From Quadrisphaera sp. DSM 44207 (lineage in GTDB: Bacteria; Actinomycetota; Actinomycetes; Actinomycetales; Quadrisphaeraceae), in NCBI RefSeq assembly GCF_900101335.1, contig NZ_FNKA01000001.1, positions 496,001-560,000 on the forward strand: a stretch of 64,000 nt of DNA. Direction: 5' to 3'. The notes under the pieces were generated by a model, which was given only the letters and a program-made list of their open reading frames with translations, was not told the DNA's origin and searched no databases. Both the position numbers and the translations under genes were made by a program. This document shows positions 38,409-61,846 of this stretch, piece after piece; the first letter of the stretch is position 1; every line of letters begins with the position of its first letter.

Positions 38409-39538
38409 CGGCGCAGGCCCGCCGGCTGCGCCCCCTGCTGCACTCCCTGCTGGATACCCGGCTGGACCCCTGGCTGGACCCCCGGCTGGACCGGGCGCTC
38501 GGCGCCGGCCTGCAGCCGGGCCGGCGCCGAGCCGGTGCGCGGCCACTGCCCCGCGCCGCGGCCGACGACCTCGCGCACGATGTACAGGGGCCGGCCCTGC
38601 ACGTCGGTGTAGATGCGGCCGATGTAGGACCCGAGGATCCCCAGCATGATCGTCTGCACCCCGCCGATGAGCAGGATGCTGATGACGATGAACGTCCACC
38701 CCGGGATCGTCACCTCGGGGAAGAAGAACTTCATGACGATCGCGTAGACGATGCCGAGGAACGCCAGCGCCGCGAACAGGTAGCCGATGCGGGCGATGAG
38801 CTGCAGCGGGGCCGCGGAGAAGCTCATGATGCCGTCCGCCGCGAACTTGATCATCTTCTTGAGCGGGTAGCCCGTGACGCCGGAGTGCCGCTCGTCGCGG
38901 TCGAAGGGCACGGCGACCTGGCGGAAGCCGGCGAAGCTGACCATGCCGCGCAGGAACCGGTTGTGCTCGCGCATGGAGACCAGCTGGTCCACGACCGCGC
39001 GGTCCATGAGCCGGAAGTCCCCGGTGTTGCGGGGGATGTCGATGTCGGCGACCGAGTGCAGCAGGCGGTAGTACACGTCGGCCGTCAGCCGCTTGAACAG
39101 GGTGTCCTTGCGGCTGCGCCGCTGCGCGTACACGACGTCGTTGCCGGCCTCCCAGGCGGCGAGCAGCTCGAAGCTGACGCTCGGCGGGTCCTGCAGGTCG
39201 CTGTCCATGATGATCACCGCGTCGCCGCGGGCGGCGTCCAGGCCCGCGGTGACCGCGAGCTGGTGCCCGAAGTTGCGGGAGAGGTCGAGGACGACCACGC
39301 GCTCGTCGGCGGCGGCCAGCTCGTGCAGCAGCTCCAGGGAGCGGTCGCGGCTGCCGTCGTTGACGAAGATCAGCTCGTAGTCGTACTCGGGGTGGGCGGC
39401 GAGCAGGTCGCTGAGCGTGCGGTGCAGCAGCGGGATGTTCCCGGCCTCGTTGTAGATGGGGAAGATGTAGCTGACGAGCTTGCGCTCCCGCTGGGTCTCC
39501 ACTGCTGCTCCCGGTGCGTGCGTGCTGGGGACGGTCAT
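38405..39538 (-). CDS. GtrB/DPM1-like polyprenyl-phosphate glycosyltransferase
   Basis: 377 residues. A GT2 domain (about 20-240) carries VSYIFPIYNEAGNIPLL, FVNDGSRDRSLE, RNFGHQLAVTAGLD and the metal motif IMDSDLQDPP. Two C-terminal helices (about 250-275 and 285-310) are typical of GtrB. It charges polyprenyl phosphate with a sugar for the next protein, the GtrA fusion. The last 40 residues hold QPGVQPGVQPGIQQGVQQG repeats. ATGA overlaps at both ends. Confidence 0.93.
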   Translation of the reverse strand: MTVPSTHAPGAAVETQRERKLVSYIFPIYNEAGNIPLLHRTLSDLLAAHPEYDYELIFVNDGSRDRSLELLHELAAADERVVVLDLSRNFGHQLAVTAGLDAARGDAVIIMDSDLQDPPSVSFELLAAWEAGNDVVYAQRRSRKDTLFKRLTADVYYRLLHSVADIDIPRNTGDFRLMDRAVVDQLVSMREHNRFLRGMVSFAGFRQVAVPFDRDERHSGVTGYPLKKMIKFAADGIMSFSAAPLQLIARIGYLFAALAFLGIVYAIVMKFFFPEVTIPGWTFIVISILLIGGVQTIMLGILGSYIGRIYTDVQGRPLYIVREVVGRGAGQWPRTGSAPARLQAGAERPVQPGVQPGVQPGIQQGVQQGAQPAGLRR

Positions 39539-40260
39539 GCCGACTGCCGCAGGTGGTCGACGGCGGCGTGCGCCGGGCCGTCGAAGACGGCCCGGCCGGA
39601 CTGCAGGACGACCCCGCGGTCCACGAGGGCCTGCACCATGTCGAGGTCGTGGCTGACGATGACGAGGGTGCGCCCCTCGTCGCGCAGCACCCGGATCCGC
39701 TCCAGGCACTTGCGCTGGAACGGCTCGTCGCCGACCGCGAGGATCTCGTCGATGAGGAAGATCTCGGGGTCGGTGTGGGCGGCGACGGCGAAGGCCAGGC
39801 GCAGGAACATGCCCGAGGAGTAGTGCTTGACCTCGGTGTCGATGAAGCGCTCGATCTCGCTGAAGGCGACGATGTCGTCGAAGCGGCGCCGGATCGTCGC
39901 CTCGTCCATGCCGAGGATCGCGCCGTTGAGGAAGACGTTCTCGCGCCCGGTCAGGTCGGGGTGGAATCCCGCGCCCACCTCGATCAGCCCGGCGATGCGC
40001 CCGCGCACGCGCACCTGGCCGCTCGTGGGGCGCATCACCCCGGAGATGAGCTTGAGCAGGGTCGACTTGCCCGACCCGTTGAACCCCAGCAGGGCGACGG
40101 TCTCGCCGGCGTCCACGCGCAGGGAGACGCCGTCCAGGGCCATGAAGCTGTTGGACAGGTCGCGCCCGCGCACGGCGTAGACGGCGAGCTCCTTGAGGGA
40201 GCGGGTGTGGCGCAGCAGGAAGCGCATGCGCACGTCGTCGACCTCGATGGCGACGCTCAC
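39535..40260 (-). CDS. Polysaccharide ABC exporter ATPase (Wzt/RfbE type)
   Basis: 241 residues. Walker A LLGFNGSGKST, signature YSSGMFLRLAFAVAAHTDP, Walker B IFLIDEILAVGD and the switch His in VSHDLDMVQ. The N-terminal VRMRFLLRHTRSLKELAV marks wall-polymer exporters (homologues of Rv3781-type galactan ATPases). There is no C-terminal glycan-recognition domain. GTG start 19 bases after the permease stop. Confidence 0.93.
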   Translation of the reverse strand: MSVAIEVDDVRMRFLLRHTRSLKELAVYAVRGRDLSNSFMALDGVSLRVDAGETVALLGFNGSGKSTLLKLISGVMRPTSGQVRVRGRIAGLIEVGAGFHPDLTGRENVFLNGAILGMDEATIRRRFDDIVAFSEIERFIDTEVKHYSSGMFLRLAFAVAAHTDPEIFLIDEILAVGDEPFQRKCLERIRVLRDEGRTLVIVSHDLDMVQALVDRGVVLQSGRAVFDGPAHAAVDHLRQSA

Positions 40261-40279
40261 GGCCGCTCCCCCGCGCCCA

Positions 40280-41151
40280 TCACAGCTCCTGGGCGAACCG
40301 GCCCTCGAGGCGCCGGAAGACGGCCTGACCGAGGGCGAGGACGAGCACCGCGACGCCCAGCGCCCAGGCGGTGTGCCACAGCAGGTGCGGCGGCAGCACC
40401 TCGGGGCCGAGCCCGGAGCCGGGCAGCCAGAACGCCCAGTGGAACAGCTCCACCGCCACGGTCACGGGGTTCAGCTGGTAGATGGTCAGCAGCACCGGGT
40501 TGTCGGCCACCAGGGGGGTCGCGGCGACCTGCTGCCAGGAGTAGAGCACCGGCGAGATCCACACGGCGACCATGAGCAGCAGGTCGACGAGGTTCTCCAG
40601 GTCGCGGAAGACGGTGTTGACCGCCCCGCACAGCAGCCCCAGGCCGGTGGCCAGCAGCAGCACGACGAGGAACCCGGCCACCGCGGCGAGCAGCGGCACC
40701 ACCTGCGGGCGCCAGCCGGCGACGACCGCCCCCACGAGCAGCACCACCAGCTGGGGCACGAAGTGCACGATCGCCACCCACACGCTGGCGACCGGGAACA
40801 GCTCGCGCGGCAGGTAGATCTTCTTGACGAGGTCGGCGTTGTTGAGCACCGAGCGGGTGGCGTTGCCCAGGGCCTCGGAGAAGAGGTTGACGACGATCAT
40901 CCCGGAGAACAGGTACACCGCGAAGTCGGGGATGACCTCCCGCAGCCGCAGGAACACGCCCAGGGCGAGGAAGTAGACGACGTACTGCACGCCCGGCTTG
41001 ACGTAGGACCACGCCAGGCCGAGGACGGAGCCGTGGTAGCGCACCCGCAGCTCCTTGCGCACCAGCAGCTGCAGCAGGTAGCGCCGGCGCACGACGTCGA
41101 GCAGCCCCGCGCCGTGGCCGGGGACCACCGCGGGGGCGCTGGCCACCGCGG

Positions 41152-41155
<4 letters not shown>
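40280..41155 (-). CDS. Polysaccharide ABC exporter permease (Wzm type)
   Basis: 291 residues with six membrane segments. The N-terminal LLVRKELRVRYHGSVLGLAW is the ABC-2 polysaccharide-exporter signature; NADLVKKIYLPRELFPVASV and LNPVTVAVELFHW also match. With the ATPase it would export lipid-linked galactan, by analogy to mycobacterial Rv3783/Rv3781. The ATG overlaps the GlfT2-like stop. Confidence 0.93.
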
Positions 41156-44450
<3,295 letters not shown>

Positions 44451-44525: not shown

Positions 44526-47369
44526 TCAGGCGAGCACGCCCGCGAGGTGGTCTCGCAGCGCCGCCGGGGACGGCGGGGAGCACCGGAAGCCCACGTGCCC
44601 GTCGGGGCGCACCACGTGCGCCGCGGCGCCGCGCACGCCGTAGGCGGCCCGGTACTCCTCCGCGGCGTCCCGGTGGGAGGGCAGGTCCAGCAGCGGCGGC
44701 ACCGCGGCGTCGGGGCTGAGGACCAGGTGCACGTCGACCAGGCCGGGGGCCTGCGAGCGGACCGCGTCGGCGATCTTCTCGAACCCCAGCAGCTCCTCCT
44801 CGCCGACGGTGGCGTCGGCGTAGAGCAGCACGGCCGTGCGCGGGCCGGCCAGCACCTCGAACAGCCGCACCGGGTGCGCCACCCCGAACCTGCGCAGGCC
44901 GAGGGCGTCCGGGGCGCGGTGGCCCGGCTCCGGGCCCCCCAGGGGCGCCTCGAGGCGCTCGCCGACGAGCGGGCTGCCGGCGTAGTTCATCGTCATCTGC
45001 ATCTCGAGGAGGAACTGCGCCTTCTCGTCCTCCATGTCCATCTCGTCCGTGAAGGCGAGGTTGACGGCGCGGTCGACGATCGCCCTGCCCGCGGGCCGGC
45101 GCTCGGCGTCGTAGCTGTCCAGCAGGCCCGGGGCGGCGCGCCCCCGCACGGCGAGGGCCAGCTTCCAGCCCAGGTTCCACGCGTCCTGGATGCCGGTGTT
45201 CATGCCCTGCCCGCCGGCCGGGGGGTGCAGGTGCGCGGCGTCCCCGGCGACGAAGGCGCGCCCGACGCGGTAGCGGTCGACGATGCCGTGCTTGATGCGG
45301 AACACCGAGGACCAGCGCAGGTTGCTCGCCGTGGTGCCGGGCGGCGCGAGCTCGGTGACGACCTCCTGGATGTCGGCCAGGCCCGGCGGCTCGTACTCCT
45401 TCCAGAACCCGGCGGAGACCACGCCCGCGCCGACGGTCCTCTGCAGCCGCTCGGGGGCGAGGGTCGCCACCCGGTAGCGGCCCCGGCCCTTGAGGGGGAC
45501 GCAGACGAGCATGCCCGTGAAGTCGTCGCCCTCGATGCGCACGAAGCGCAGCAGGTGCCCGGCCGGCATCTGCCAGTCCAGGTCGACGTCGCCGAGCATG
45601 AACAGCTGCGGGAACATCGACAGCCCGCCCTCGAACTGCAGGCCCAGGCCCGAGCGGACCGCGCTGTGCGCGCCGTCGCACCCGAGCAGGTACGGGGAGC
45701 GGACCGTCTCCTCCCCGTCGGCGGAGCGCAGGACGCTGGTGACGGCCTCGTCGTCCTGGGTGAAGCCGACGAGCTCGACGCCGCGCTCGACGCGCACGCC
45801 GAGGGACTCCAGCTTGGCGCCGAGGATCCGCTCGGTCTCGTACTGCGGCAGGCCGAGGTGGGCGTAGGGCAGCTCGTCCAGGCCCGCCCAGTCGACCTGG
45901 TGGGTCTGCTTCCCGTTGACGAACACGGTCTGCCCGTGCAGCCACACCCCGGCGTCCATGGCCTCGGCGACGATGCCCTGCTGCTCCCAGATCTCCATGG
46001 TGCGGCAGTGGATGCCGATCGCCTTGTCGGCCTGGGTGGAGGCCTCGGGGCGCTTGTCGACCACGCGCACGCGCACGCCGCGGCGGGCCAGCTCGATGGC
46101 GGCGGTCATGCCCGCCGGCCCGGCGCCGATGACGAGCACCTCCGGGTCGCCGGCTCCTCCCGGGCGCCGCGCGGGCGCGACCGGCTCTAGGGGCGCCGGG
46201 GCGAGCCCCGGCTCGATCGCCGCGGGATCGACGACGACCGGCTCGCCCGCCACCGCCTCCAGGTCCGGCTCGGGCGCCGCGACCAGCACCTCCGGGACGG
46301 CGTCGGCCGGCTCCTGCGAGGCGGACGCCGGATCGGGCGCCTGCTGCGGCGCCTGCTGCGGCGCCTGCTGCGACGCCGCCTGCGACGCCGCCTCGGGCGC
46401 CGGCTGCGCCGAGGGCGGCAGCGGGCGCGCGCGCAGCGCGAAGACCCGCCGCTCCTCCCCGCGCGCCAGCCACCGGCCCAGCGGCCCGGCGGCCCAGTTC
46501 GCCGGCTCGGCCGCCCAGTGGGTGAAGCGCTGCAGGGAGTCCCACTCCGCGACGACGTGGTAGCGCAGCCCGTCGGCCTCGCGCAGCAGCTCCTCGCACC
46601 CGTGGCCCGGGGCGCTGCGCGCCAGCGCCGCCGCGGCGAGGTAGGCGTGCTCGAAGGCGTCCTGCTCCTCCGGCTGCACGGTCACCGCGGTGTCGACGCG
46701 CACCCGGTCCACCTCGACGTCGCCGCCGGGCGAGGCCAGCGGCGGGAACTCCTCGTCGGCGTCCGGGCGCCGGCGGATCTCGAGCACCTCGCGGCGGAAC
46801 TCCACCGAGTGCCACCGCACCAGCGGCGCGCCCGCCGCCATGTGCGCGGGGTCCTCGACCCACTGCAGGAAGTCCTCCTCGGACTCCCACTCCGCGAAGA
46901 TGTGGTAGCGCAGGCCTGACTCGTCGCGCAGCAGCTCCTCGCGCACGTACCCGGCCGCGTCGCCGATCCGCTCGGCGACCGTGGTGTACGCGCGCTCGTA
47001 GGCCACCTGCTCGCCCGGCTTCACGCTCATGGAGAAGTCGATGCGCACCGGCGGGGGCCGCTCGGCGTCCACCGCGGCCAGCACGGTGAACGTCGAGCGG
47101 GCGGCGTCCTCGCGCAGGTCGCGCAGCGCCTCGGTCAGGGTCTCCCGGGCGGAGGACCTCCCGAACGCGTCGACGCTGGCCCGGTCGGTCCAGTCGCTGA
47201 CGATCGCGAACCACCGCGGGTCCGCCGCGTCGCGCATCAGCTCCTGGCGCACCTGGCCGCGCACGCGGCTGATCTGCGCGGCGGCACCGCGCCAGGCGTC
47301 CTCGAACGCCTGCTCGCAGCCCTCCTTCGCGCGCATCCTCAGGACGGTGCGCACCCCGGCACCGCTCAC
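44526..47369 (-). CDS. Three ABM domains fused to an FAD-dependent aromatic monooxygenase
   Basis: 947 residues. Three antibiotic-biosynthesis-monooxygenase-like ferredoxin folds occupy about 1-100 (VLRMRAKEGCEQAFEDAWRG), 103-205 (FSMSVKPGEQVAYERAYTTV) and 210-310 (TAVTVQPEEQDAFEHAYLAA), each with an LxxDE/LLREADGLRYHV-type strand. A linker with QQAPQQAPQQAP repeats follows (about 315-405). The FAD monooxygenase runs from about 405: GAGPAGMTAAIELARRG (414), DG motif LLGCDGAHSAVRSGLG, GD motif VAGDAAHLHPPAGGQGMN (700), and a thioredoxin-like tail. In spore-pigment clusters such oxygenases are separate genes. It should hydroxylate or quinone-oxidise the polyketide. GTGA overlap with KS-beta. 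Confidence 0.88.
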   Translation of the reverse strand: MSGAGVRTVLRMRAKEGCEQAFEDAWRGAAAQISRVRGQVRQELMRDAADPRWFAIVSDWTDRASVDAFGRSSARETLTEALRDLREDAARSTFTVLAAVDAERPPPVRIDFSMSVKPGEQVAYERAYTTVAERIGDAAGYVREELLRDESGLRYHIFAEWESEEDFLQWVEDPAHMAAGAPLVRWHSVEFRREVLEIRRRPDADEEFPPLASPGGDVEVDRVRVDTAVTVQPEEQDAFEHAYLAAAALARSAPGHGCEELLREADGLRYHVVAEWDSLQRFTHWAAEPANWAAGPLGRWLARGEERRVFALRARPLPPSAQPAPEAASQAASQQAPQQAPQQAPDPASASQEPADAVPEVLVAAPEPDLEAVAGEPVVVDPAAIEPGLAPAPLEPVAPARRPGGAGDPEVLVIGAGPAGMTAAIELARRGVRVRVVDKRPEASTQADKAIGIHCRTMEIWEQQGIVAEAMDAGVWLHGQTVFVNGKQTHQVDWAGLDELPYAHLGLPQYETERILGAKLESLGVRVERGVELVGFTQDDEAVTSVLRSADGEETVRSPYLLGCDGAHSAVRSGLGLQFEGGLSMFPQLFMLGDVDLDWQMPAGHLLRFVRIEGDDFTGMLVCVPLKGRGRYRVATLAPERLQRTVGAGVVSAGFWKEYEPPGLADIQEVVTELAPPGTTASNLRWSSVFRIKHGIVDRYRVGRAFVAGDAAHLHPPAGGQGMNTGIQDAWNLGWKLALAVRGRAAPGLLDSYDAERRPAGRAIVDRAVNLAFTDEMDMEDEKAQFLLEMQMTMNYAGSPLVGERLEAPLGGPEPGHRAPDALGLRRFGVAHPVRLFEVLAGPRTAVLLYADATVGEEELLGFEKIADAVRSQAPGLVDVHLVLSPDAAVPPLLDLPSHRDAAEEYRAAYGVRGAAAHVVRPDGHVGFRCSPPSPAALRDHLAGVLA

Positions 47370-48622
47370 GCGGTCCCCTCGGGCACCCAGCGGCGCAGCA
47401 CCATCGAGCTGTTGAAGCCGCCCAGGCCGCGGGCGTTGACGAGCACCACCTCGACGCGGCCCTCCCGGGCCTCGCGCACGAGCTCGAGCCCGGCGGCCGG
47501 GACCGGCTCGTGCAGGTTGCCGACGGCGGGCAGCACGCCGTCGCGGATGCTCAGCAGCGCGGTGGCCGCGGACAGCGCCGAGCCGCCGACGCTGAGCCGG
47601 CCGACCAGGCCCTGGGGCGCGGCCACGGGCACCGGGGTCGTGCGGGCGCCGAAGACCTCCTGCAGCGCCCGCACCTCCACGGCGTCGAGCGCGGGCACGC
47701 CCGCGGCGTCCGCGATCACCAGGTCGACGTCGTCGGGGGTGACCCCCGCGTCGGCCAGGGCCCGGCCCATCGCCCGCGCGAGCTGGCGCGAGTCCGTGGC
47801 CGGCGCGGTCACCGACTCCGCGTCGTGGGTGGCCGCGTAGCCGGCGACCTCCCCGTACACCTGCGGGGCGCCGCGCTCGAGCGCGGCGGCGGCGTCCTCG
47901 ACCACGAGCACCGCGCCGCCCTCGCCGGGCGCGTAGCCGTCGGCGCGCACGTCGAAGGGCCGGTAGCCCTCCGCCGCCGTGGTGCCGGGCGTCAGCCGGC
48001 CCCCGACCGCCTGGCAGGCGAGCGCGTACGGGGACAGGCCGGCCTCGGTGCCCCCGGCGAGCACGGTCGGCGTGCCGCGGCGCACCACCCGCCGGGCGTG
48101 GCCGATGCTGTCCAGGCCGCCGGCGCCCTCGCTGACCAGCACGCTGGCCGGGCCCTTGGTGCCGTGCCAGATCGACGCCTGGCCGGTGCTGGCGGCGTAG
48201 AACCACGCGATCGACTGGTAGGTGGTGACGGCCTTCGGGCCGCGCCCGTACAGGCCCGTCATCTCCCGCTGGCCGAACTCGTTGCCGCCCGAGCCCGCGG
48301 CCAGGGCCACGGACGTCGCGTACGGGTCGTGCTCGGCCGGGTCGTACGCCGCGTCGGCGAGCGCCATCCGGCTGGCGGCCAGCGACATCCACGTCCAGCG
48401 GTCGGTCTGCACGAGCAGGCGCTCGTCGACGTGGTCCTCGGGCTTGAAGCCGTCGACCTGCCCGCCGAGGGTGACGCCGCAGGTGGTGGTGTCCCACCCC
48501 TCCACGGGCCGCACGCGCACCTGCCCGGCGCGCACGGTGGCCCAGTGCTCCTGGGTGCCGATCCCGCTGGGGGCGATGACGCCGAGCCCGGTGACGACCG
48601 CGCGGCCGCCGGCCCGGCTCAC
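47366..48622 (-). CDS. Type II polyketide chain-length factor (KS-beta)
   Basis: 418 residues. A ketosynthase fold with [35 protein letters not shown] and [14 protein letters not shown]. Where KS-alpha has its active-site cysteine (VMSTGC), this protein has VLVSEG, so the residue is Gly166. Most chain-length factors carry Gln there. It pairs with KS-alpha to set chain length and, in many systems, to prime by decarboxylating malonyl-ACP; loss of Gln raises a question about priming. GTGA overlaps both sides. Confidence 0.93.
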
Positions 48623-49898
48623 CGGGAGCCCCGCTCGGGGTCGACGAGCAGGATCGCGGACTGGAAGCCCCCGAACCCGCTGCCGACGGACAGCGCGACG
48701 TCGGTGCGGTGGTCCCGCGCGGTCTTCGGCACGTAGTCCAGGTCGCACTCCGGGTCGCGGTTCTCCAGGTTCGCCGTCGGCGGGACGGCGTCGTGCTCGA
48801 CGGCGAGGGCGCAGGCGGCGACCTCGATGGAGCCGATGGCGCCGAGCGAGTGCCCGACCATCGACTTGATCGAGCTCATCGGTGTCTCGTACGCGTGCTG
48901 GCCGAGGCTGCGCTTGACCGCCGCGGTCTCGTGCCGGTCGTTCTGCTTGGTGCCCGAGCCGTGCGCGTTGACGTAGTCCACGGCGTCCGGGTCCAGCCGG
49001 CCCTGGCGCAGGACCTCGTCGATGGCGGCGCTCATCTCCACCCCGTCGGGGCGCAGGCCCGTCATGTGGAAGGCGTTGCAGCGGTTCGCGAAGCCGGCGA
49101 CCTCGGCGTAGACGTGCGCGCCCCGGGCGCGGGCGTGCTCGTACTCCTCGACCACCATCACGGCCCCGCCCTCGCCCATGACGAACCCGTCGCGGGTGGC
49201 GTCGAAGGGCCGGGAGGCGGACTCGGGGCTGTCGTTGCGCGCCGACGTGGCCCGGATGGCGTCGAAGCACGCCACCGAGATCGGCGAGATCGGGGCGTCG
49301 CTGGCGCCGGCGATGACGACGTCGGCGTCCCCGTCCTCGATCAGCTGCAGGGCGTACCCGATCGCGTCGATGCCCGAGGTGCAGCCCGTGGACATCACCG
49401 AGGCGGGGCCGTGGGCCCTGTAGCGGACGGCGAGCTCGGCGGCGCCGCTGCTGGGCACGAGCGCCTGGGAGAGGAACCGGCTGCCGTAGGCCGGGTCCAC
49501 GACCCAGTTGCGGCCGCCGTCGGTGACCCGCACGTACTCGTCCTCCAGGCGCATGGTGGCGCCGACCGCGCTGCCGAGGCTGATCGACAGCCGGTCGTGG
49601 TCCACGCCGGTGCCCGAGTCCAGGTCGAGGCCGCTGTCGGCCACGGCCTCGTCCGCGGCCACCATCGCGAACTGCACGAAGCGGTCGGTGCGCGCGACCT
49701 CCTGGGGGGTCAGCCCCCGGGCGCGGGGGTCGAAGTCGACCTCGGCCGCGATCTGCGAGCGGAAGCCCGAGGCGTCGAAGAAGGAGATCCGCCGGGTCGC
49801 GGTGCGCCCGTCGAGGAGCATCTGCCAGAACGCGTCGCGGGTGGGGCCCCCGGGGGCGACGACCCCGATGCCGGTGACGACGGCGCGGCGACCACCGA

Positions 49899-49902
<4 letters not shown>
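48619..49902 (-). CDS. Type II polyketide beta-ketoacyl synthase (KS-alpha)
   Basis: 427 residues. The catalytic triad is C174 ([14 protein letters not shown]), H314 ([11 protein letters not shown]) and H351 ([12 protein letters not shown]), with K346 nearby. Other marks: [19 protein letters not shown] and [13 protein letters not shown]. It catalyses the repeated decarboxylative condensation of malonyl units on the ACP. The overall type resembles whiE-like spore-pigment KS-alpha. GTG overlaps the cupin stop, and its stop overlaps KS-beta. Confidence 0.96.
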
Positions 49903-52598
<2,696 letters not shown>

Positions 52599-52602
52599 GT
52601 CC

Positions 52603-53175
52603 TCACCCCACCCCGACGGCCGGGGTCGCGGCGCCAGGCACCTGCGGCCCGGGACGCACCCGCACCAGCGGCTGCTCGAACTCCACCGCCTGGGCGTCGC
52701 CGACGAGCAGCTCGACGACCTCGCCCTCGACGTCGGAGAGGATCGGGTTCATCAGCTTCATGGCCTCGACGATCCCGAGCGCCTGGCCGACGGCGACGAC
52801 GTCGCCGACGGAGACGAACGGCTCGGCCCCCGGCGAGGGCGAGCGGTAGAAGGTGCCGACGAGCGGGGCGCGCACCACGTGCCCGTCCGCGTCCTCGTCG
52901 ACCGCCACGGCGTCCTCGGCCACCAGGGCGGGCGCGCTCGCCGCGCCGGGCGCGGCCGGCGCACCGGCCGGCGCGGTGCCCGCGGGCGGGCCGGCCGGCT
53001 CGTGCCAGTCGACCTCGACGGCCGCCTCGCCGCGGCGGACGGCGATGCGGCGCAGCGGGCCGCGCAGGCTGCGGGCGAGCGAGACGGCCTGCTCGCACAG
53101 CTCGGCGAGGTCGTCCGGCTGCGGGTCGGCCGTGCGGGCGGCCGGCAGGCGCGAGGGCTGGGGCGAGGCGCTCAC
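52603..53175 (-). CDS. accB: Biotin carboxyl carrier protein
   Basis: 190 residues. The biotin lysine is K140 in VEAMKLMNPILSDVEGEVVE. N-terminal helices (about 20-55, DLAELCEQAVSLARSLRGPL) are followed by a Pro/Ala-rich swinging linker (60-90) and the barrel-sandwich domain with the AccB thumb (LVGTFYRSPSPGAEPFVSVG). GTGA overlap with the carboxyltransferase gene. Confidence 0.94.
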   Translation of the reverse strand: MSASPQPSRLPAARTADPQPDDLAELCEQAVSLARSLRGPLRRIAVRRGEAAVEVDWHEPAGPPAGTAPAGAPAAPGAASAPALVAEDAVAVDEDADGHVVRAPLVGTFYRSPSPGAEPFVSVGDVVAVGQALGIVEAMKLMNPILSDVEGEVVELLVGDAQAVEFEQPLVRVRPGPQVPGAATPAVGVG

Positions 53176-54884
53176 GCGGACCACCTCGCCGGGCCGGCGC
53201 CGACGGCGCGCAGGCGGGCGCTGCGGCGGCGCACGAGCTCGTCCGGGTCCAGCTCCTCCAGGGCCGCGAGCTCCTCCAGGACGGCGGCGCGCACGATCGC
53301 GGCCGCCGTGACCGGGTCGGCGTGGGCACCGCCGGGGGGCTCGGCCAGGACGCCGTCCGCGACGCCGAGGCGCACGAGGTCGCCCGCCGTCAGGCGCAGC
53401 GCCCGCGCCGCCTCCGCGGCGGCGCCCGCGGTGCGCCACAGGATCGCCGCGCACCCCTCGGGGCTGATGACGGAGAAGAACGCGTTCTCCAGCAGCAGCA
53501 GGCGGTCGGCGGTGGCGAGGGCCAGGGCCCCGCCGCTGCCGCCCTCGCCCGTGACGACGCTGACGACCGGCACCCGCAGGCGCGCGGAGCGGGCGATGAG
53601 CTCCGCGATCGCGCCGGCCTGGCCGCGCTCCTCCGCCGCCACGCCCGGGTAGGCGCCGGGGGTGTCGACGAGCGTGACGACGGGCACGCCGAGCCGCTCG
53701 GCCAGGGCGAACAGTCGCAGCGCCTTGCGGTAGCCCTCCGGGTGCGGCATCCCGAAGTTGCGGGCGACCAGCTCGCGGGTGTCGTGGCCCTTCTGGTGGC
53801 CCACGACGACGACCGTGCGCCCCCCGATGGAGGCGAGGCCGCCCACGATCGCCGGGTCGTCGGCGAGGGCGCGGTCCCCGTGCAGCTCCACGACGTCGTC
53901 GAACGCCGTCGCGAGGTAGTCCGTCGCCGTCGGCCGGCCCGGGTGGCGGGCCTCGCGCACGACGTCCCACGGGTCGCGCCCGTCGGGGCCCGGCTCGCGG
54001 CGCGGCGCCGGCCCGGTCTCCGGCCCGGTCTCCGCCGCGGCGGCCTGGGCCTTGGCGCGGGCGGCGGGGTCCGCGGCGGCCGCGGACAGGGCCAGCAGGC
54101 GCACGAGCACGGGGCGCAGCTGGTCGCGCGTCTCCACCCGGTCGACCAGCCCGTGCGAGAGGAGGGACTCGGCGACCTGGAACCGCTCGGGCAGCGGCTG
54201 CGGCACGGTCTGGCGGATGACGCGGGGCCCGGCGAAGCCGACGAGGGCCCCGCTCTCGGCGACGAGGACGTCGCCGAGGGTGGCGAAGGACGCCGTCACG
54301 CCGCCGAACGTCGGGTCCGTCAGGACGCACACCGACAGCAGGCCGGCCTCGCGCAGCACCGCCATCGCCTGGCTGGTCTTGGCCATCTGCAGCAGGGAGA
54401 CCGCGCCCTCCTGCATGCGCGCGCCGCCGGAGGCGGTGACGACGACCAGGGGCAGGCGCCGCTCCAGCGCGTGGTCGACGGCGCTGGCCACCGCCTCGCC
54501 CACGGCGGCGCCCATGCTGCCGCCGAGGAAGTCGAAGTCCATGACGGCCAGGACGGCCGGGTGCCCGCCGAGCGTCGCGGCCCCGACGACCGCGCCCTCG
54601 ACCTCGCCGGTGGCGGCGCGCGCCGCGCGCAGCCGGTCGGGGTAGGCCTGGGAGTCGGTGAAGCCCAGCGGGTCGTCCGCGGGCGGCTCGACGGTCAGCT
54701 CCTCGAAGCTGCCCGGGTCGGCGAGCTGCGCGATCCGGGCGCGCGCGCCGAGGCGGCCGTGGTGGCCGCACTCGTGGCAGACGCCGAGCTCGCGCGAGAG
54801 GCGGCGGCCGTAGAGCAGCCGGCCGCAGGCCGTGCAGCGCACCCACTCGCTGTCGGTGGTCGTGCGCGTCGAGAGCGTGCTCAC
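53172..54884 (-). CDS. accDA: Fused acetyl-CoA carboxylase carboxyltransferase (AccD-AccA)
   Basis: 570 residues. The N-terminal half is AccD (beta): a zinc ribbon with C17, C20, C36 and C39 (RCTACGRLLYG, GVCHECGHHGR), then VMDFDFLGGSMGAAVGEAV and TASGGARMQEGAVSLLQMAK. The C-terminal half (about 315-570) is AccA (alpha): DYLATAFDDVVELHGDRALA, DTPGAYPGVAAEERGQAGAI and VTGEGGSGGALAL. The fusion is known in some actinobacteria. It moves the carboxyl group from biotin to acetyl-CoA. GTG overlaps the TcmI-like cyclase stop. Confidence 0.95.
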   Translation of the reverse strand: MSTLSTRTTTDSEWVRCTACGRLLYGRRLSRELGVCHECGHHGRLGARARIAQLADPGSFEELTVEPPADDPLGFTDSQAYPDRLRAARAATGEVEGAVVGAATLGGHPAVLAVMDFDFLGGSMGAAVGEAVASAVDHALERRLPLVVVTASGGARMQEGAVSLLQMAKTSQAMAVLREAGLLSVCVLTDPTFGGVTASFATLGDVLVAESGALVGFAGPRVIRQTVPQPLPERFQVAESLLSHGLVDRVETRDQLRPVLVRLLALSAAAADPAARAKAQAAAAETGPETGPAPRREPGPDGRDPWDVVREARHPGRPTATDYLATAFDDVVELHGDRALADDPAIVGGLASIGGRTVVVVGHQKGHDTRELVARNFGMPHPEGYRKALRLFALAERLGVPVVTLVDTPGAYPGVAAEERGQAGAIAELIARSARLRVPVVSVVTGEGGSGGALALATADRLLLLENAFFSVISPEGCAAILWRTAGAAAEAARALRLTAGDLVRLGVADGVLAEPPGGAHADPVTAAAIVRAAVLEELAALEELDPDELVRRRSARLRAVGAGPARWSA

Positions 54885-55291
54885 GCGAGCACCTCCGGCC
54901 CCGAGCCGGGACGGTAGGTGTAGAAGCAGCGCGCCTGCGCGTCGGCCGGCGAGCGCCACGTCGCCAGGTACGGCGAGATGTGCGGCTGGAGCTGGGCGCT
55001 GACGTCGCGGAAGCCGGGCAGGCCCACCGCCACCGCCATCGCCTCCTCGGCGCTGCGGTCGAACTCCACCAGGTGCACGTAGGCGTCGCCGAGGCTGTAC
55101 AGCGAGCGCTCGGTGACGCCGAGCTGCTGGGGCAGGTCGGTGCGGTCCGACTCGGCGAAGACCCGGGCGACGTCGGGCTCGGCGCCCGGGGCGATCCGGG
55201 CGACGATCACGGTGCGGGATCCGGTGCGGGATCCGGCACCGCTGGTGCCGGCGCTGGTGCCGGCGCTGCCGACGGCGCTGCCTCGACGCAT
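54881..55291 (-). CDS. TcmI-family polyketide cyclase
   Basis: 136 residues from the ATG at 55291 (GGAGG upstream). The core VIVARIAPGAEPDVARVFAE, LPQQLGVTERSLYSLGDAYV, HLVEFDRSAEEAMA and LQPHISPYLATWRSP is typical of the TcmI/WhiE-ORFVII cyclases (dimeric alpha-beta barrel), which close later rings. The first 25 residues are Gly/Ser/Thr-rich and may be unstructured. It is the first gene of the ten-gene polyketide operon. Confidence 0.92.
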   Translation of the reverse strand: MRRGSAVGSAGTSAGTSGAGSRTGSRTVIVARIAPGAEPDVARVFAESDRTDLPQQLGVTERSLYSLGDAYVHLVEFDRSAEEAMAVAVGLPGFRDVSAQLQPHISPYLATWRSPADAQARCFYTYRPGSGPEVLA

Positions 55292-55735: not shown

Positions 55736-56716
55736 TCAGTCGCGGGTGACGGGGACGTCGAGGAGGGCGCCGTACTCCGCCCAGCCGCCGACGTAGTGGC
55801 GCACGCGGGGGTGCTCCAGCAGCCCGGCCAGGGCGAACCACAGCGTCGCGCTGCGCTCGGGCGTGCGGCAGTACAGCGCGACGTCCGTCGTGGCGGAGAC
55901 GCCGCGGGAGGCGAAGAGCTGGTGCAGCTCCTCGCGGCTGCGGAAGCGGGTGTCGCGCAGCAGGAGCGCGGACGGCAGGCTGCGGGCGCCGGGGATCCGG
56001 CCGCTGACCCGGTGCCGCTCGACGGCGACGTCGAGGCGGTGGTGGGCGCGCCCGCGGTACTCCTCCGGGGTGCGGCAGTCGATGAGCAGGGTGCCGTCGC
56101 GGGAGCCGACGTAGCGGGCGAGCAGCTCGTCGCGGCCCACCGCCGCCCACGGGTCGCGGCCGGGGCTGGTGTAGCGGCCGACGCGGCGGGCGGTGGGCAC
56201 GCGCGTCTGCAGCGGGTGGCCGGCGCGCACCCACGCCAGCATGCCGCCGTCCAGGACGCTGACGCGCGGGTGGCGGTACAGGCGCATGAGCCAGTAGGCG
56301 AACGTGGAGTGGTCGCGGTCCTCGTGGGCCGTGGCCGAGTAGAGGACGACGTGGTCGTCCGTCGTGACGCCCCGGCTCTGCATGAGCTCCTCGAAGTGCT
56401 CGCGCGTGATGGGACCGCGCCGCACCTGCTCGTACAGGTCGTCGTAGGTGGCCACCGGCAGGGCGCCGGGCAGGTGCACGTCGTAGTAGGACGCCGAGTC
56501 GTCGTCGACCTGCAGCAGCACCACCTCGTCGTGGTGCTCGGCCAGCCACGCGGCGTCCACCAGCGGGGGCACCCCGTCGGGCCCGCAGCGCGGGCCGGAC
56601 GGCGCGCCCGAGGGCCCCGGCGGCTGCGGCGGGTCCAGCAGGTCCGACAGGTCCGGCAGGTCGGGCGGGTCCGGCAGGCGGGCCCCGGGCGCGCCGCCCG
56701 GGGGTTGCTCACTCAT
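55736..56716 (-). CDS. Two-domain rhodanese-type sulfurtransferase
   Basis: 326 residues. Two rhodanese domains: about 50-160 (no active cysteine; VVLYSATAHEDRDHSTFAYW sits at the loop) and about 195-320, with the active-site C283 in ALYCRTPERSATLWFALAG. A CRTPEEYRG motif begins the second domain. The first 45 residues are Pro/Leu/Asp repeats (PDPPDLPDLSDLLDPPQPP). Thiosulfate or 3-mercaptopyruvate sulfurtransferase activity is likely; its role next to the polyketide genes is unclear. ATG overlaps the LuxR-like stop by eight bases. Confidence 0.88.
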   Translation of the reverse strand: MSEQPPGGAPGARLPDPPDLPDLSDLLDPPQPPGPSGAPSGPRCGPDGVPPLVDAAWLAEHHDEVVLLQVDDDSASYYDVHLPGALPVATYDDLYEQVRRGPITREHFEELMQSRGVTTDDHVVLYSATAHEDRDHSTFAYWLMRLYRHPRVSVLDGGMLAWVRAGHPLQTRVPTARRVGRYTSPGRDPWAAVGRDELLARYVGSRDGTLLIDCRTPEEYRGRAHHRLDVAVERHRVSGRIPGARSLPSALLLRDTRFRSREELHQLFASRGVSATTDVALYCRTPERSATLWFALAGLLEHPRVRHYVGGWAEYGALLDVPVTRD

Positions 56717-57434
56717 CGAGCAGGCCCCACCGCTCCGCGCGCAGCAGGGCGTCGGTGCGGCTGGCGGCGCCGAGGCGGGCGTAGGTCTTGGACAGCAGGC
56801 GGTACATCTCGCGCTCGGAGTACGCCGCGTACTGCGCGAGGACCGCGACGGTGACGCCCCGGCCCAGCTGGCGCAGCCAGCCCAGCTCGCGCGGCTCGAG
56901 CTGGGGGGCCGCGGCCAGCGGCGACGGCTCGCACAGGGCGCGGGCCACGTGCTCGGGCAGGACGATGCGCCCCGCGGCGGCCGAGCGCACGGTCTCCACC
57001 GCGAGGTCGAGGTCGGCGCCGGTGTGCAGCACGCCCACGGCGCCGCGGCGCACCGCGGTGACGAACGTCTCCAGCGACTCCTCCTCGGTGACCTCCACGA
57101 CGGCGAGCGCGCCGCCGTCCCGGGAGGCGAGGGCCAGGACGGGCTCGGCGCGCTCGTCCGGGACGACGACGAGCGCGGCGCCGTCCACGGGCAGGGCGTC
57201 GGCGAGGGCGTCGGGCAGGGCGCCGGCCATGTCCTGGCCGTCCAGGAGGAGCACGGGGCCGACGCCGGCGGCGCTCAGGGCCTCCTGCAGGCCGTGGCCG
57301 TACAGCTCGGGCAGCCCGGCCAGCACGACGCGCCGCGACGGTGAGGAGGACCGCTCCTCGGGGACCTCCACCTGCACCGCCTCGGGCTGGACGACGTCTG
57401 ACGGCAGCCGCGGCCTCGCGAGCACCTGAACCAT
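56709..57434 (-). CDS. LuxR-like regulator with degenerate receiver domain (paralogue 1)
   Basis: 241 residues from the ATG at 57434 (earlier GTG lies inside the promoter). The N-terminal domain (about 35-165) has the shape of a response-regulator receiver (VVLAGLPELYGHGLQEALSA, VTAVRRGAVGVLHTGADLDL) but no clear phosphorylatable Asp triad, so it is probably ligand- or partner-controlled. The C-terminal LuxR helix-turn-helix (about 175-240) reads LAQYAAYSEREMYRLLSKTY. It overlaps the rhodanese gene, so both are co-transcribed. The second regulator is a paralogue. Confidence 0.85.
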   Translation of the reverse strand: MVQVLARPRLPSDVVQPEAVQVEVPEERSSSPSRRVVLAGLPELYGHGLQEALSAAGVGPVLLLDGQDMAGALPDALADALPVDGAALVVVPDERAEPVLALASRDGGALAVVEVTEEESLETFVTAVRRGAVGVLHTGADLDLAVETVRSAAAGRIVLPEHVARALCEPSPLAAAPQLEPRELGWLRQLGRGVTVAVLAQYAAYSEREMYRLLSKTYARLGAASRTDALLRAERWGLLDE

Positions 57435-57448
57435 GACCACCTCTCGAG

Positions 57449-57477
57449 ACAGTGACCGCAGGCACATGGGGTGTCAA
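57449..57477 (-). promoter_or_regulatory. TTGACA-17-CACTGT promoter of LuxR-like gene 1
   Basis: On the minus strand TTGACA (57477 to 57472), 17 bases, then CACTGT (57454 to 57449). TTGACACCCCATGTGCC forms a loose dyad over the -35 box that resembles the one at the second luxR gene. Confidence 0.6.
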
Positions 57478-57574
57478 GTCGAATCAACGCTGCGTGACAC
57501 CGCATCGTCGGCGTGCGAGAGCCCGGCGGCCGAGGCGCTCGCGCCGCGGCGGCGCGGGCCTCGGCCGGCGGTGC

Positions 57575-58504
57575 TCAGCGGGGGTCGGCGAGCAGGCCCG
57601 AGCGCTGGGCCGTGAACAGCGCCTCGGTGCGGTTCTTGGCGCCGAGGCGCCGGTAGACGCTGCCCAGGAGGCGGTACATCTCCCGCTCCGAGTAGGAGGA
57701 GCGCTGGGCGAGCTCGGCGACGGTCACGCCGGCGGCGATCTGGCGCAGCCAGGAGCGCTCGCGCTCGGACAGCTGCGGGGCCGGCTGGGTGTGCAGCGGC
57801 CGGCACAGGGAGCGCACCACGGCCGGCGGCAGCAGCGTCAGCCCGCGGGCGGCGCCGCGCAGGACGGCGACGACCTCGGGCAGGCGCGCCCTCGGGTGCA
57901 CGAAGCTGCGGGCCCCCGCCCGCAGGCCCGTCAGGTAGCTGCTCGGCCGGTCGTCGCGCAGCAGCAGCACCAGCTCGACGCGGCGCCGCCGGCCGTCGAG
58001 GGCCGCCAGCGCCCGGGTCCCGAGCTCCTGGGGGACGACGAGCAGGCACGTCGCGCCGTCGCCGGCGGCGGCCTCGAGCTCCTCCAGGTCGGGAACCAGG
58101 GCGCTGCGCATGCCGCTGTGCGCCAGCGCCGAGCACAGCCCGTGGCCGTAGACCGGGGCCACGCCCGTGATGAGGACGAGGGGCGCGGCGGCGTCCGGCG
58201 CTGGGAGCGACGGCTGCGGCGGTGCCGAGGGCAGCGGCTGAGCCGAGGGCTGCGGCGGTGCCGAGGGCAGCGGCTGAGCCGAGGGCTGCGGCCGCGCCGG
58301 GCGGGACGCCGGACGCGGCGGCGAGCGCAGCGGCGAGCGCTGCGACGGGCGCGGCGGCTGCGGCGGCGCCGAGCGCTGCGGCACCACCGAGGGCGGCGCG
58401 GTCCCTCGCGTCAGAGGGCGCGGTGGCGCGGGTGAGAGTGACGACTGGTCCACGAGCACGGTCCCCCCGGCGGCTGCGTCCTGAGTCGGAGAGCCCACCG
58501 TCAT
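57575..58504 (-). CDS. LuxR-like regulator with degenerate receiver domain (paralogue 2)
   Basis: 309 residues from the ATG at 58504, but GTG 58453 has GGGGGA eight bases before it and may be the real start. A Pro/Ser/Arg-rich N-terminal region with QPSAQPLPSAPP repeats (about 30-110) is followed by a receiver-like domain (ITGVAPVYGHGLCSALAHSG) without a visible phosphate-accepting Asp triad, and a LuxR helix-turn-helix (QRSSYSEREMYRLLGSVYRR, LGAKNRTEALFTAQRSGLL). It shares about the same plan with paralogue 1, which lies downstream in the same direction. Confidence 0.82.
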   Translation of the reverse strand: MTVGSPTQDAAAGGTVLVDQSSLSPAPPRPLTRGTAPPSVVPQRSAPPQPPRPSQRSPLRSPPRPASRPARPQPSAQPLPSAPPQPSAQPLPSAPPQPSLPAPDAAAPLVLITGVAPVYGHGLCSALAHSGMRSALVPDLEELEAAAGDGATCLLVVPQELGTRALAALDGRRRRVELVLLLRDDRPSSYLTGLRAGARSFVHPRARLPEVVAVLRGAARGLTLLPPAVVRSLCRPLHTQPAPQLSERERSWLRQIAAGVTVAELAQRSSYSEREMYRLLGSVYRRLGAKNRTEALFTAQRSGLLADPR

Positions 58505-58525
58505 CAAACGGACACTCGGTGTCAA
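58497..58525 (-). promoter_or_regulatory. TTGACA-like promoter and GACAC dyad of LuxR-like gene 2
   Basis: TTGACA (58525 to 58520, minus strand) with a weak -10 GACGGT 17 bases on. The perfect dyad GACAC-TCG-GTGTC (58511-58523) covers the -35 box. If this promoter is used, the ATG at 58504 lies upstream of the transcript start, which favours the later GTG start. Confidence 0.55.
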
Positions 58526-58680
58526 CCGGACAAAAGACCCGTGGAGCTGCCGCGGCGGGGACGCGGCACGAACCTGCCGAGGGCTGTCAGGCTCGACGCC
58601 GCCGCGGCAGCCGTCCCCGACGTCGGCGGCGTCCCCGCCGTCGTCGAGGGGGTCGCGGTCGTCGACGGGGTCGCCGTCGT

Positions 58681-58740
58681 CCGCGGGGTCGCGCCGGCAC
58701 CCGCGGGGTCGCGCCGGCACCCGCGGGGTCGCGCCGGCCG
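58681..58740. repeat. Three perfect 20-bp tandem repeats
   Basis: CCGCGGGGTCGCGCCGGCAC occurs at 58681-58700 and 58701-58720, with a third copy (last two bases differ) at 58721-58740, directly before the stop of the minus-strand glycosyltransferase. Degenerate GGGGTCG-containing units extend upstream to about 58640. It lies in the 238-base gap that also holds the luxR promoter. Confidence 0.85.
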
Positions 58741-60659: not shown

Positions 60660-60705
60660 CGCGCCCGCGGCCGCGCACGTGCCGGCGCGAGCGGCAGCGG
60701 CGGGC

Positions 60706-61797
60706 TCAGGCGCGCGCGGCGGCGTCCGCGGCCTCGAGGACGGCGTCCGGCACGGCGCCGGCGAGGCCGATGGCCGTCACCGAGGACGTCGCGGTGGCGG
60801 CCAGCGCCCCGGCGGTCTCACCGCTCAGCCCGCTCGGCGCGGTCAGGTACAGGGGGCGCTGCCGGCTGCCGGCGAGCGGCCCGCTGGCCAGGGCGTCGGG
60901 GAAGCGCACCCCGTTGACGAGGTAGCCCTGCGCCGCGTCGGCGAAGCCGAGCCCGAAGCCGGCGACGCCGCCCGGCCCGGTCGCGGCGCCGGCGCCGGCC
61001 TGCGGCGCGCTCGCCAGCGCCAGCAGCACGGCGGCGGTGTCGTAGCGGGTGGCGCCCGCGGCGACGACGACCTCGAGCCCGTCGGCGGCCAGGGCGTCGA
61101 GCACGCGGGAGGAGACCACCGCGCTGCCGCCGAGCACCACCACCTGGGCGATCCCGAGGTCGCGCAGCGCCGAGCGGGTGGCGTCGGGCAGGGCGTCGCG
61201 CGCGGTCAGCAGCAGCGGCACGCGCCCGGCGTAGGCCAGCGGCCCCGCGGACAGGCCGTCGGCGGGGTTGGTGCCGCTGGCCACGAGCGCGGTGCGGGCG
61301 GCGGGCGAGCCCGCGAGCAGCGCGCGGGGAGCGATGGAGGCCGCGCCGAGGCGGGCCGCGGCGGCCGCGGTGGCGTAGCGGTCACCGCCCTGCACGCGCA
61401 CCACCTGCGCGCCGGGCAGCAGCTCGCGCAGGTGGTCCAGGACGGCGTCCGCGACGACGGCGGGCCCGCCCATGACGTGCACCGTGCGCCCCGCGCCCGC
61501 CCCGGCGCCCGCACCGGCGCTCGAGCCGCCGCCCGAGCCGCCGCCGCTCCCGCCGAGCAGCGCCGCCGCGGCGTCGCGGGTCGGGGCGGGCAGGCGGTCG
61601 CGCGCCGTCAGCAGCACCGGGGCGCCGACGTGGCCGGCGAGGAACGTCGCGCTCAGGGCGTCGATGCCGCCGGCCGCGTCCTCGCCGCTGGCCACGACGA
61701 CGCCGGGCACGGCGCCGGCGGGCAGGTCCGCGGCGAACGCCTCCGCGACGAGGGCCGCCGTGGCGTAGCGGTCGCCGCCGCCGATCCGCCCGCTCAC
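60706..61797 (-). CDS. Cell-wall-binding repeat 2 (CWB2) protein lacking a visible signal peptide
   Basis: 363 residues. Three CWB2 modules are marked by RIGGGDRYATAA (about residue 4), VQGGDRYATAAAAARLG (about 135) and AGATRYDTAAVLLALA (about 245), each with a PVLLTARD/PLLLTARDALP-type strand and VHVMGGPAVV/VVVLGGSAVV segments. Such proteins bind wall glycans outside the cell, but this frame begins directly with the first module. The only start is a GTG inside an array of 11-bp repeats, and an in-frame stop lies 30 bases upstream. Either the signal peptide was lost by repeat slippage or the gene is truncated. Confidence 0.8.
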   Translation of the reverse strand: MSGRIGGGDRYATAALVAEAFAADLPAGAVPGVVVASGEDAAGGIDALSATFLAGHVGAPVLLTARDRLPAPTRDAAAALLGGSGGGSGGGSSAGAGAGAGAGRTVHVMGGPAVVADAVLDHLRELLPGAQVVRVQGGDRYATAAAAARLGAASIAPRALLAGSPAARTALVASGTNPADGLSAGPLAYAGRVPLLLTARDALPDATRSALRDLGIAQVVVLGGSAVVSSRVLDALAADGLEVVVAAGATRYDTAAVLLALASAPQAGAGAATGPGGVAGFGLGFADAAQGYLVNGVRFPDALASGPLAGSRQRPLYLTAPSGLSGETAGALAATATSSVTAIGLAGAVPDAVLEAADAAARA

Positions 61798-61846
61798 GAG
61801 GCGCTCACGAGGAGGCTCACGAGGAGCTCAGGAGGAGCTCACGAGG
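61791..61846. repeat. 11-bp minisatellite at the CWB2 gene start
   Basis: Five imperfect units around CGCTCACGAGG (61791-61801, 61802-61812, 61813-61824, 61825-61835, 61836-61846), 11 or 12 bases long. The GTG start of the wall-binding protein is in the first unit. Units of 11 bases shift the frame when gained or lost. Confidence 0.8.

What the first reader, a model, noticed from the sequence alone, without database searches (positions are those of the whole stretch)
44526..55291. Ten-gene unreduced type II polyketide operon with built-in acetyl-CoA carboxylase
TcmI-like cyclase, AccDA, AccB, AccC, ACP, aromatase, cupin, KS-alpha, KS-beta and oxygenase are collinear on the minus strand, nearly all with 4-base overlaps. 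There is no ketoreductase, priming KS, acyltransferase or phosphopantetheinyl transferase. A full malonyl-CoA supply placed between the cyclase and ACP genes is unusual. The product is likely an unreduced, whiE-like aromatic pigment, not one I can name.
Basis: partly seen in the sequence, partly recalled or inferred. Interest (0 to 1): 0.75.

Follow-up and report, generated by a model that had tools for sequence, protein, structure and literature searches.

The report
Aromatic pigment-type operon with built-in malonyl supply
This is a real, intact set of ten genes that probably builds an unreduced aromatic polyketide of about 24 carbons and makes its own malonyl-CoA feedstock; the layout recurs in other actinobacteria, and no product of this gene set was found in the papers searched.

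Summary
Confirmed: ten intact, collinear minus-strand genes; 7 of 9 junctions overlap by 4 bases. The last gene is more than an oxygenase: three ABM domains fused to an FAD aromatic hydroxylase. Two LuxR-type paralogues and a rhodanese upstream (55736-58720) are conserved in 4 of the 5 nearest relatives fetched. The ACC placement is not peculiar: the order cyclase-AccDA-AccB-AccC-ACP-aromatase-cupin-KSalpha-KSbeta recurs in 25 of 25 loci of the two nearest groups (Geodermatophilaceae add one gene before the cupin). The genome has other carboxyltransferase and biotin carboxylase loci. The KS pair groups apart from two whiE-type loci and nearest, among characterised kinds, to the Frankia clade that includes the frankiamicin (C24 pentangular) producers. 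Residues tied to products of 24 or more carbons are present; the ketoreductase reported as invariable in pentangular clusters is missing. Best reading: a KR-less, ACC-bearing variant of the frankiamicin kind that makes an unreduced, pentangular-like pigment. Chain-length class is supported; product and role are inferred. Side finding: none of 70 clade KSbeta has the Gln161 found in 17 of 18 other non-whiE rows.

The parts
54881..55291 (-). TcmI/FkmC3-like polyketide cyclase, first gene of the operon
   Evidence: Pfam PF04673 2.3e-37; ATG behind GAGGAGGA
53172..54884 (-). AccDA, fused acetyl-CoA carboxylase carboxyltransferase beta-alpha, zinc ribbon kept
   Evidence: PF03255 3.9e-111, PF01039, PF17848; TIGR00515 and NF004344 above cut-off
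52603..53175 (-). AccB, biotin carboxyl carrier protein with EAMKLMN biotin motif
   Evidence: TIGR00531 above cut-off; sequence
51240..52598 (-). AccC, biotin carboxylase
   Evidence: NF006367 above cut-off
50902..51165 (-). acyl carrier protein (DLGLDSL)
   Evidence: PF00550 1.4e-8
50390..50905 (-). monodomain aromatase/cyclase, TcmN / WhiE-ORFVI type
   Evidence: PF03364; solved relatives 3tvr, 3tl1, 2kf2 'polyketide cyclase' at 4e-60 to 1e-59 and TcmN 2rer 2.8e-48; that the first three are WhiE-ORFVI is recalled
49899..50393 (-). cupin polyketide cyclase, TcmJ/FkmC2 type
   Evidence: PF07883 2.4e-16; same slot before KSalpha in relatives
48619..49902 (-). KSalpha, active-site Cys in TGCTSG
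   Evidence: PF00109/PF02801; actinorhodin KSalpha 1tqy_A 8.9e-164
47366..48622 (-). KSbeta / chain length factor; N109 G112 M116 and Gly at position 161 (actinorhodin numbering)
   Evidence: 1tqy_B 1.9e-102; residue tables
44526..47369 (-). fusion of three ABM domains with an FAD aromatic hydroxylase, last gene of the operon
   Evidence: PF03992 three stretches, PF01494 6.1e-82; ABM part: whiE-locus protein 9lmn 4.5e-6; hydroxylase part: rifampin monooxygenase best, then FlsO1, PgaE, GrhO5, RubL among others
55736..56716 (-). rhodanese-type sulfurtransferase, conserved neighbour upstream of the cyclase
   Evidence: PF00581 3.3e-22; 53-58% identical and in the same place in L033, L034, L035, L181
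56709..57467 (-). paralogue of the LuxR-type regulator next to it (no Pfam hit of its own)
   Evidence: 96 of 239 positions identical to the 57575-58720 product; matches next to the rhodanese in L033, L034, L035, L181
57575..58720 (-). LuxR-family regulator, possible pathway regulator
   Evidence: PF00196 2.5e-6; matches in L033, L034, L035, L181 and, weakly (30%), L066

Best explanation
The operon encodes a minimal type II PKS with three cyclases, a dedicated acetyl-CoA carboxylase and a fused ABM/FAD oxygenase. AccC, AccB and AccDA carboxylate acetyl-CoA to malonyl-CoA. The housekeeping PPTase and FabD-type transferase activate and load the ACP. [quoted passage not shown] The TcmN/WhiE-type aromatase closes the first rings, the cupin and TcmI-type cyclases the rest, and the ABM domains assist ring closure and quinone formation. 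The FAD domain adds hydroxyl groups. With no ketoreductase the C-6 carbonyl stays unreduced, giving a coloured, pentangular-like polyphenol, perhaps cell-bound. Shown: gene content, intactness, synteny, phylogeny, chain-length-class residues. Inferred: starter unit, exact length, ring pattern, colour, role. It is a KR-less, ACC-bearing variant of the frankiamicin kind.
For: KSalpha+KSbeta tree, IQ-TREE, 47 rows: window with Quadrisphaera, Kineococcus, L181 and Glaciihabitans 98/96; plus Geodermatophilaceae 99/98; plus Amycolatopsis and Micromonosporaceae 100/99; plus Frankia 100/99; the two whiE-type loci outside (99/98). Three Frankia rows come from contigs whose lengths equal the genome sizes of F. 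alni ACN14a, CcI3 and EuI1c (table), strains that PMC4383371 shows with the frankiamicin-type cluster. The fkm order TcmI-ACP-TcmN-TcmJ-KSa-KSb-KR-ABM-ABM equals the window's but for ACC added, KR missing and FAD hydroxylase fused on. KSbeta I133, A139, S140, tied by that paper to products of 24 or more carbons, are present. Same nine-gene order in 25 of 25 loci of the two nearest groups.
Against: No product of this gene set was found in the papers searched. The Frankia residues are only partly shared: N109, A195, KSalpha A110 and S204 yes; D110, R118, V129, T192 no. The I/A/S-T pattern is also in the whiE-type and TGM rows, so it marks a length class, not this kind alone. The KR called invariable in pentangular clusters (PMC4383371) is absent. 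Two Quadrisphaera loci lack the hydroxylase. KSbeta position 161 is Gly, so the residue used for decarboxylative priming in other synthases (recalled) is missing; Frankia rows lack it too (0 of 14 Gln), but EAN1pec itself was not identified among them.
Confidence: 0.7

Rival explanations
1. It is an orthologue of the Streptomyces whiE spore-pigment cluster and makes the same spore pigment.
For: Same kinds of parts: cupin, KSa, KSb, ACP, aromatase, TcmI cyclase, ABM protein, FAD hydroxylase; ABM part matches a whiE-locus protein, weakly; I133/A139/S140 shared. PMC4255298 reports whiE-like pathways in several actinomycete genera (passage).
Against: KS genes group apart from the two whiE-type Streptomyces loci; gate residues NGM against GGL; other gene order and no ACC in L177/L178. 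A relative lies in Kineococcus indalonis, and another Kineococcus, K. rubinsiae, is described as non-spore-forming (PMC7472656, passage).
Confidence: 0.15
2. It makes a diffusible antibiotic of the formicamycin/benastatin/persiamycin sort rather than a pigment.
For: ACC genes occur in the formicamycin and persiamycin clusters; antiSMASH labels of two Geodermatophilus strains include formicamycins (both) and xantholipin (one) (PMC12453565); frankiamicin A was isolated from extracts.
Against: No methyltransferase, halogenase, glycosyltransferase or resistance gene in the operon. The downstream glycosyltransferases and transporter are of a galactofuran/cell-wall kind and gave no match in the 13 relatives tested apart from a 35% ABC ATPase match in L034 (flanks there are short). 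KS pairs of the Streptomyces loci with ACC (L165, L167, L169) form a separate clade.
Confidence: 0.13
3. The ACC genes are simply the housekeeping carboxylase that happens to sit in the operon.
For: The window AccDA is by far the best ACCA match of the genome (372.6 bits; next, C4:177649, 150.6 bits).
Against: Three other carboxyltransferase loci, one beside the fabF-type gene, and two other biotin carboxylases. The trio directly precedes ACP or aromatase in 43 of 69 loci of the clade.
Confidence: 0.02

Closest known systems
frankiamicin (fkm) cluster, Frankia sp. EAN1pec (PMC4383371)
   Same: Order TcmI cyclase, ACP, aromatase, cupin, KSa, KSb, ABM; no initiation genes; KS sister clade; LuxR regulator upstream; KSbeta N109, A195 and the I/A/S-T pattern
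   Different: fkm has a ketoreductase and two separate ABM genes, and its table lists no ACC and no FAD hydroxylase; the window has an ACC trio, no KR, 3xABM fused to an FAD hydroxylase, a rhodanese
Streptomyces whiE spore-pigment cluster
   Same: Set of parts, no ketoreductase, related aromatase
   Different: KS clade, gate residues, gene order, no ACC (two whiE-type loci compared here)
persiamycin (per) cluster, Streptomonospora (PMC7296137)
   Same: ACC (perHIJ) plus TcmI/TcmJ/TcmN-type cyclases and minimal PKS
   Different: Glycosylation genes and an oxoacyl-ACP reductase; PerI and PerJ listed together, PerH apart (table excerpt); sequences not compared
formicamycin (for) cluster, Streptomyces formicae (PMC5414599, PMC6689052)
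   Same: ACC, TcmN-, TcmI- and cupin-type cyclases, ABM proteins
   Different: Two single-domain ABM proteins, halogenase, methyltransferases, separate flavin enzymes; sequences not compared

Membership tests
bacterial type II PKS (minimal PKS) | KSalpha with Cys, KSbeta without it, ACP, encoded together | tested here: met
pentangular subclass (features as given in PMC4383371) | three cyclases of TcmN, TcmJ and TcmI type | tested here: met
   order
pentangular subclass (features as given in PMC4383371) | two ABM homologues encoded by adjacent genes | tested here: inconclusive
   three ABM domains in one fused protein instead of two genes
pentangular subclass (features as given in PMC4383371) | ketoreductase of the FkmD/PdmG/BenL kind, said to be invariably present in the clusters | tested here: not met
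   no unassigned gene in 44526-55291; KSb and the ABM gene overlap by 4 bases where fkm has its KR. The rest of the genome was not searched for a KR
KSalpha/KSbeta for 24 or more carbons | KSbeta I/V133, A139, S/T140 (PMC4383371) | tested here: met
   window I, A, S; 70 of 70, 70 of 70 and 68 of 70 clade rows, window included
frankiamicin KS clade | KSbeta N109, D110, R118, V129, T192, A195; KSalpha A110, S204 | tested here: inconclusive
   window has N109, A195, A110, S204 but E110, G118, T129, S192; sister to, not inside, the Frankia clade
whiE spore-pigment clusters | KS genes grouping with whiE-type KS | tested here: not met
   with two whiE-type loci recognised by gene order as anchors
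whiE spore-pigment clusters | product is a spore-bound pigment | not testable with these tools
   needs a mutant
heteromeric acetyl-CoA carboxylase | AccA/AccD with zinc ribbon, AccB with biotin motif, AccC | tested here: met
   activity not tested

The most novel reading that the evidence does not exclude
The locus is one instance of an unrecognised, widespread pigment system of non-Streptomyces actinobacteria, working also in genera without spores: an ACC-coupled PKS complex that feeds its own malonyl-CoA, starts chains without the KSbeta glutamine of other type II PKSs, and ends in a multi-ABM/FAD oxygenase. It would underlie dark pigments of Geodermatophilaceae and relatives.
Probability: 0.25. 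Interest if true: 0.6.

Novelty: new variant of a known kind. Interest (0 to 1): 0.38.

Why it matters
It ties a large, mostly uncharacterised KS clade to a testable product prediction, shows frankiamicin/whiE-like operons in lineages beyond the complex sporulating genera listed in PMC4255298, and offers a compact natural cassette that couples malonyl-CoA supply to aromatic polyketide synthesis. The clade-wide absence of KSbeta Gln161 makes the question of how such synthases are primed testable.

Tried and rejected
Gene swap of the FAD hydroxylase with Geodermatophilaceae: suggested by the ABM identities (65-85% to the three-ABM proteins of Geodermatophilaceae, 57-67% to Kineococcus), but the hydroxylase tree (32 rows) puts the window with Kineococcus (98) and the AU test does not reject window, Kineococcus, L181 and Glaciihabitans as one group (p 0.173). 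The ABM domain tree has only 103 columns for 97 rows and is weakly resolved; the window's third ABM does fall among Geodermatophilaceae ABMs (set of 12 rows, 100), so exchange or repeat expansion of the ABM array stays open.

Strict co-inheritance of ACC and PKS: largely so. On the AccDA+AccC tree of 48 rows all six group labels together need 5 changes, the least possible, but the window's subclade and the Micromonosporaceae/Amycolatopsis group need 2 changes each: Glaciihabitans sits with Geodermatophilaceae (100), and five Micromonosporaceae lie with Pseudonocardiaceae-type and Streptomyces rows (99), unlike their KS genes. Some replacement is likely.

A consensus promoter and terminator scan found nothing. 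The tree of KSbeta alone had low support (0.49) for the clade of window, Geodermatophilaceae, Micromonosporaceae, Amycolatopsis and Frankia; the concatenated trees support it (1.00; 100/99). No structure prediction or fold search was run.

Paper searches showed no paper that assigns a product to this gene set; I saw listings and opened 12 papers, and the library is open-access only. Seen of each: PMC4383371 outline with abstract, section 12 part 1 of 2, section 15, and passages; PMC7296137, PMC5414599, PMC6689052, PMC3462128, PMC4255298, PMC12453565, PMC7472656, PMC7888443, PMC10132072, PMC12664062, PMC340942 passages only. Recalled, from no call: that 3tvr/3tl1/2kf2 are the WhiE-ORFVI aromatase; the gene order by which L177/L178 were called whiE-type; the role of KSbeta Gln161 in priming (the papers opened cite it by title only); that Quadrisphaera and Glaciihabitans do not sporulate.
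Full report
OBSERVATION. The ten genes are real. All are open and collinear on the minus strand; third-position GC is 0.949-0.998 for nine of them, the ACP having been framed one base off in that script. Seven of nine junctions are 4-base overlaps; AccB-AccC has a 4-base gap and AccC-ACP a 74-base gap. Families are clear. The final gene is a 947-aa fusion of three ABM domains with an FAD aromatic hydroxylase; a C-terminal Rng_hyd_C match is below its cut-off. Solved relatives of the hydroxylase part are led by rifampin monooxygenase and include the polyketide oxygenases FlsO1, PgaE, GrhO5 and RubL.

BEYOND THE STATED LIMITS. Upstream lie a rhodanese (55736-56716) and two LuxR-type paralogues (56709-57467 and 57575-58720; 40% identical). 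Of 13 relatives tested, the rhodanese is found in four, L033, L034, L035 and L181, at 53-58% identity and just before the cyclase, with LuxR-type matches in front of it; it is not found in Glaciihabitans L036 or the other eight. Flanks in several of these are only 2-4 kb. A weak LuxR match (30%) also shows in L066. Downstream, UDP-galactopyranose mutase, a GlfT2-like transferase and an ABC-2 transporter gave no match in these loci except a 35% ABC ATPase match in L034.

GENOME CONTEXT. The genome (3.2 Mb, 97% complete) has three other carboxyltransferase loci; one, at C4, also matches ACCA at 150.6 bits against 372.6 for the window gene. It has two other biotin carboxylases; the one at C1:648504 is a 631-aa frame that by eye ends in a biotin motif. 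There is one fabF-type gene beside an accD-type gene, one Acyl_transf_1 match and one ACPS match. So the operon ACC is additional, and the PKS must, by inference, borrow the PPTase and the FabD-type transferase.

RELATIVES. One scan of named genomes with KSbeta gave 80 loci; 29 of them (L083, L085-L112; 25-34% identity) I took for FabF-like and set aside, after a look at four. Of these, 69 belong to the KS clade around the window. In 43 of the 69 the ACC trio directly precedes ACP or aromatase. The order cyc-AccDA-AccB-AccC-ACP-ARO-cupin-KSa-KSb is seen in 33: 5 of 5 in the window's subclade, 20 of 20 Geodermatophilaceae (which have one more gene before the cupin), 1 of 7 Micromonosporaceae/Amycolatopsis, 0 of 14 Frankia, and 3 of 11 and 4 of 12 in two further groups. 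Five of the 69 have under 7 kb of upstream sequence, so the counts are lower bounds. In Asanoa, Rhizocola and Allorhizocola the cyclase match lies after the hydroxylase. ABM matches follow KSb in 5 of 5 and 20 of 20 of the first two groups, an FAD hydroxylase in 3 of 5 and 20 of 20; the two Quadrisphaera loci lack it. Loci were chosen by similarity to the window KSbeta, so these are not population frequencies. Among 149 genomes from the same order or nearer, besides the window genome only G003, G042 and G073 carry a KSbeta of 69% or more: the locus is patchy.

PHYLOGENY. In a 47-row KSalpha+KSbeta tree the window groups with Quadrisphaera, Kineococcus, an unnamed same-order genome (L181) and Glaciihabitans (98/96), then Geodermatophilaceae (99/98), Amycolatopsis (82/56, weak), Micromonosporaceae (100/99) and Frankia (100/99). 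Two whiE-type Streptomyces loci fall outside (99/98), Streptomyces loci with a TGM gate, some with ACC, further out, and actinorhodin-type rows furthest. PMC4383371 described the Frankia members as part of a large, diverged clade of uncharacterised clusters and found that Frankia sp. EAN1pec makes frankiamicin A, a C24 pentangular polyketide. PKMiner had listed a predicted pentangular type II PKS in Geodermatophilus obscurus (PMC3462128).

MECHANISM. KSbeta I133, A139 and S140 match the pattern that PMC4383371 gives for products of 24 or more carbons; whiE-type and TGM rows share it. N109 is found in 67 of 70 clade rows, window included, and in none of 20 others. No priming KS or adenylation gene is present, so acetate priming is expected, as that paper argues for Frankia. 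Unexpectedly, position 161 of KSbeta is Gln in 17 of 18 rows outside the clade (whiE-type set apart), Glu in both whiE-type rows, and Gln in none of the 70 clade rows. The 14 Frankia rows share this, and the pathway proposed for EAN1pec uses 12 malonyl units, so the Gln may be dispensable for acetate priming; EAN1pec itself was not identified among my rows. The words glutamine and Q161 do not occur in the main text of that paper. ABM proteins can be needed for ring closure (PdmH) or act as fidelity factors (ForS). With no KR the C-6 carbonyl should stay unreduced. Colour and a cell-wall role are inference; the only hint is that a black-pigmented Geodermatophilus carries T2PKS clusters (PMC12453565).

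KNOWN OR NEW. ACC genes in type II PKS clusters are known (persiamycin, formicamycin), and so is the clade. The combination of ACC trio, no KR and 3xABM::FAD fusion was not found characterised in the searches listed under Tried and rejected. Because the KR called invariable in pentangular clusters is missing, I do not file it as a pentangular cluster but as a variant that probably works like one. PMC4255298 lists whiE-like pathways in complex sporulating genera; loci in Kineococcus, Quadrisphaera and Glaciihabitans lie outside that list, and one Kineococcus species is described as non-spore-forming (PMC7472656), though not the species that carries the locus.

Noticed in passing
L045:7244-8197 and the matching place in 19 other Geodermatophilaceae loci: Between aromatase and cupin the Geodermatophilaceae operons carry an acyltransferase-like gene (Acyl_transf_1; found in 20 of 20 loci) whose catalytic Ser is Gly in 19 of 20 (17 GHGxGE, 2 GYGxG); L041 keeps GHSLGE. 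The aligned Arg is kept in 20 of 20 and the His in 18 of 20. A conserved, apparently serine-less acyltransferase; absent from the window.
   Followed up: partly
KSbeta 47366-48622 and 69 relatives: Gln161 of KSbeta is absent from all 70 clade rows (G, A, S or T), against 17 of 18 other rows with Gln and 2 of 2 whiE-type rows with Glu.
   Followed up: partly
L034:11260-12270: In Kineococcus indalonis the second and third ABM domains are nearly identical, which looks like a recent tandem duplication; ABM and FAD parts lie in different frames there. ABM counts in the clade run from 2 to 4.
   Followed up: partly
L033 and L035: One Quadrisphaera MAG carries two different copies of the operon on two contigs, both without the FAD hydroxylase; could be two strains in one bin.
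   Followed up: no
window 36363-44369: Glycosyltransferase, GtrA-type, ABC-2 transporter, GlfT2-like galactofuranosyltransferase and UDP-galactopyranose mutase genes: a cell-wall galactan-type set directly downstream of the PKS operon.
   Followed up: partly
window 60706-61797 and 60679-63426: A frame with cell-wall-binding-repeat-like sequence and a long plus-strand ORF overlapping it; judged by eye from the translation only.
   Followed up: no
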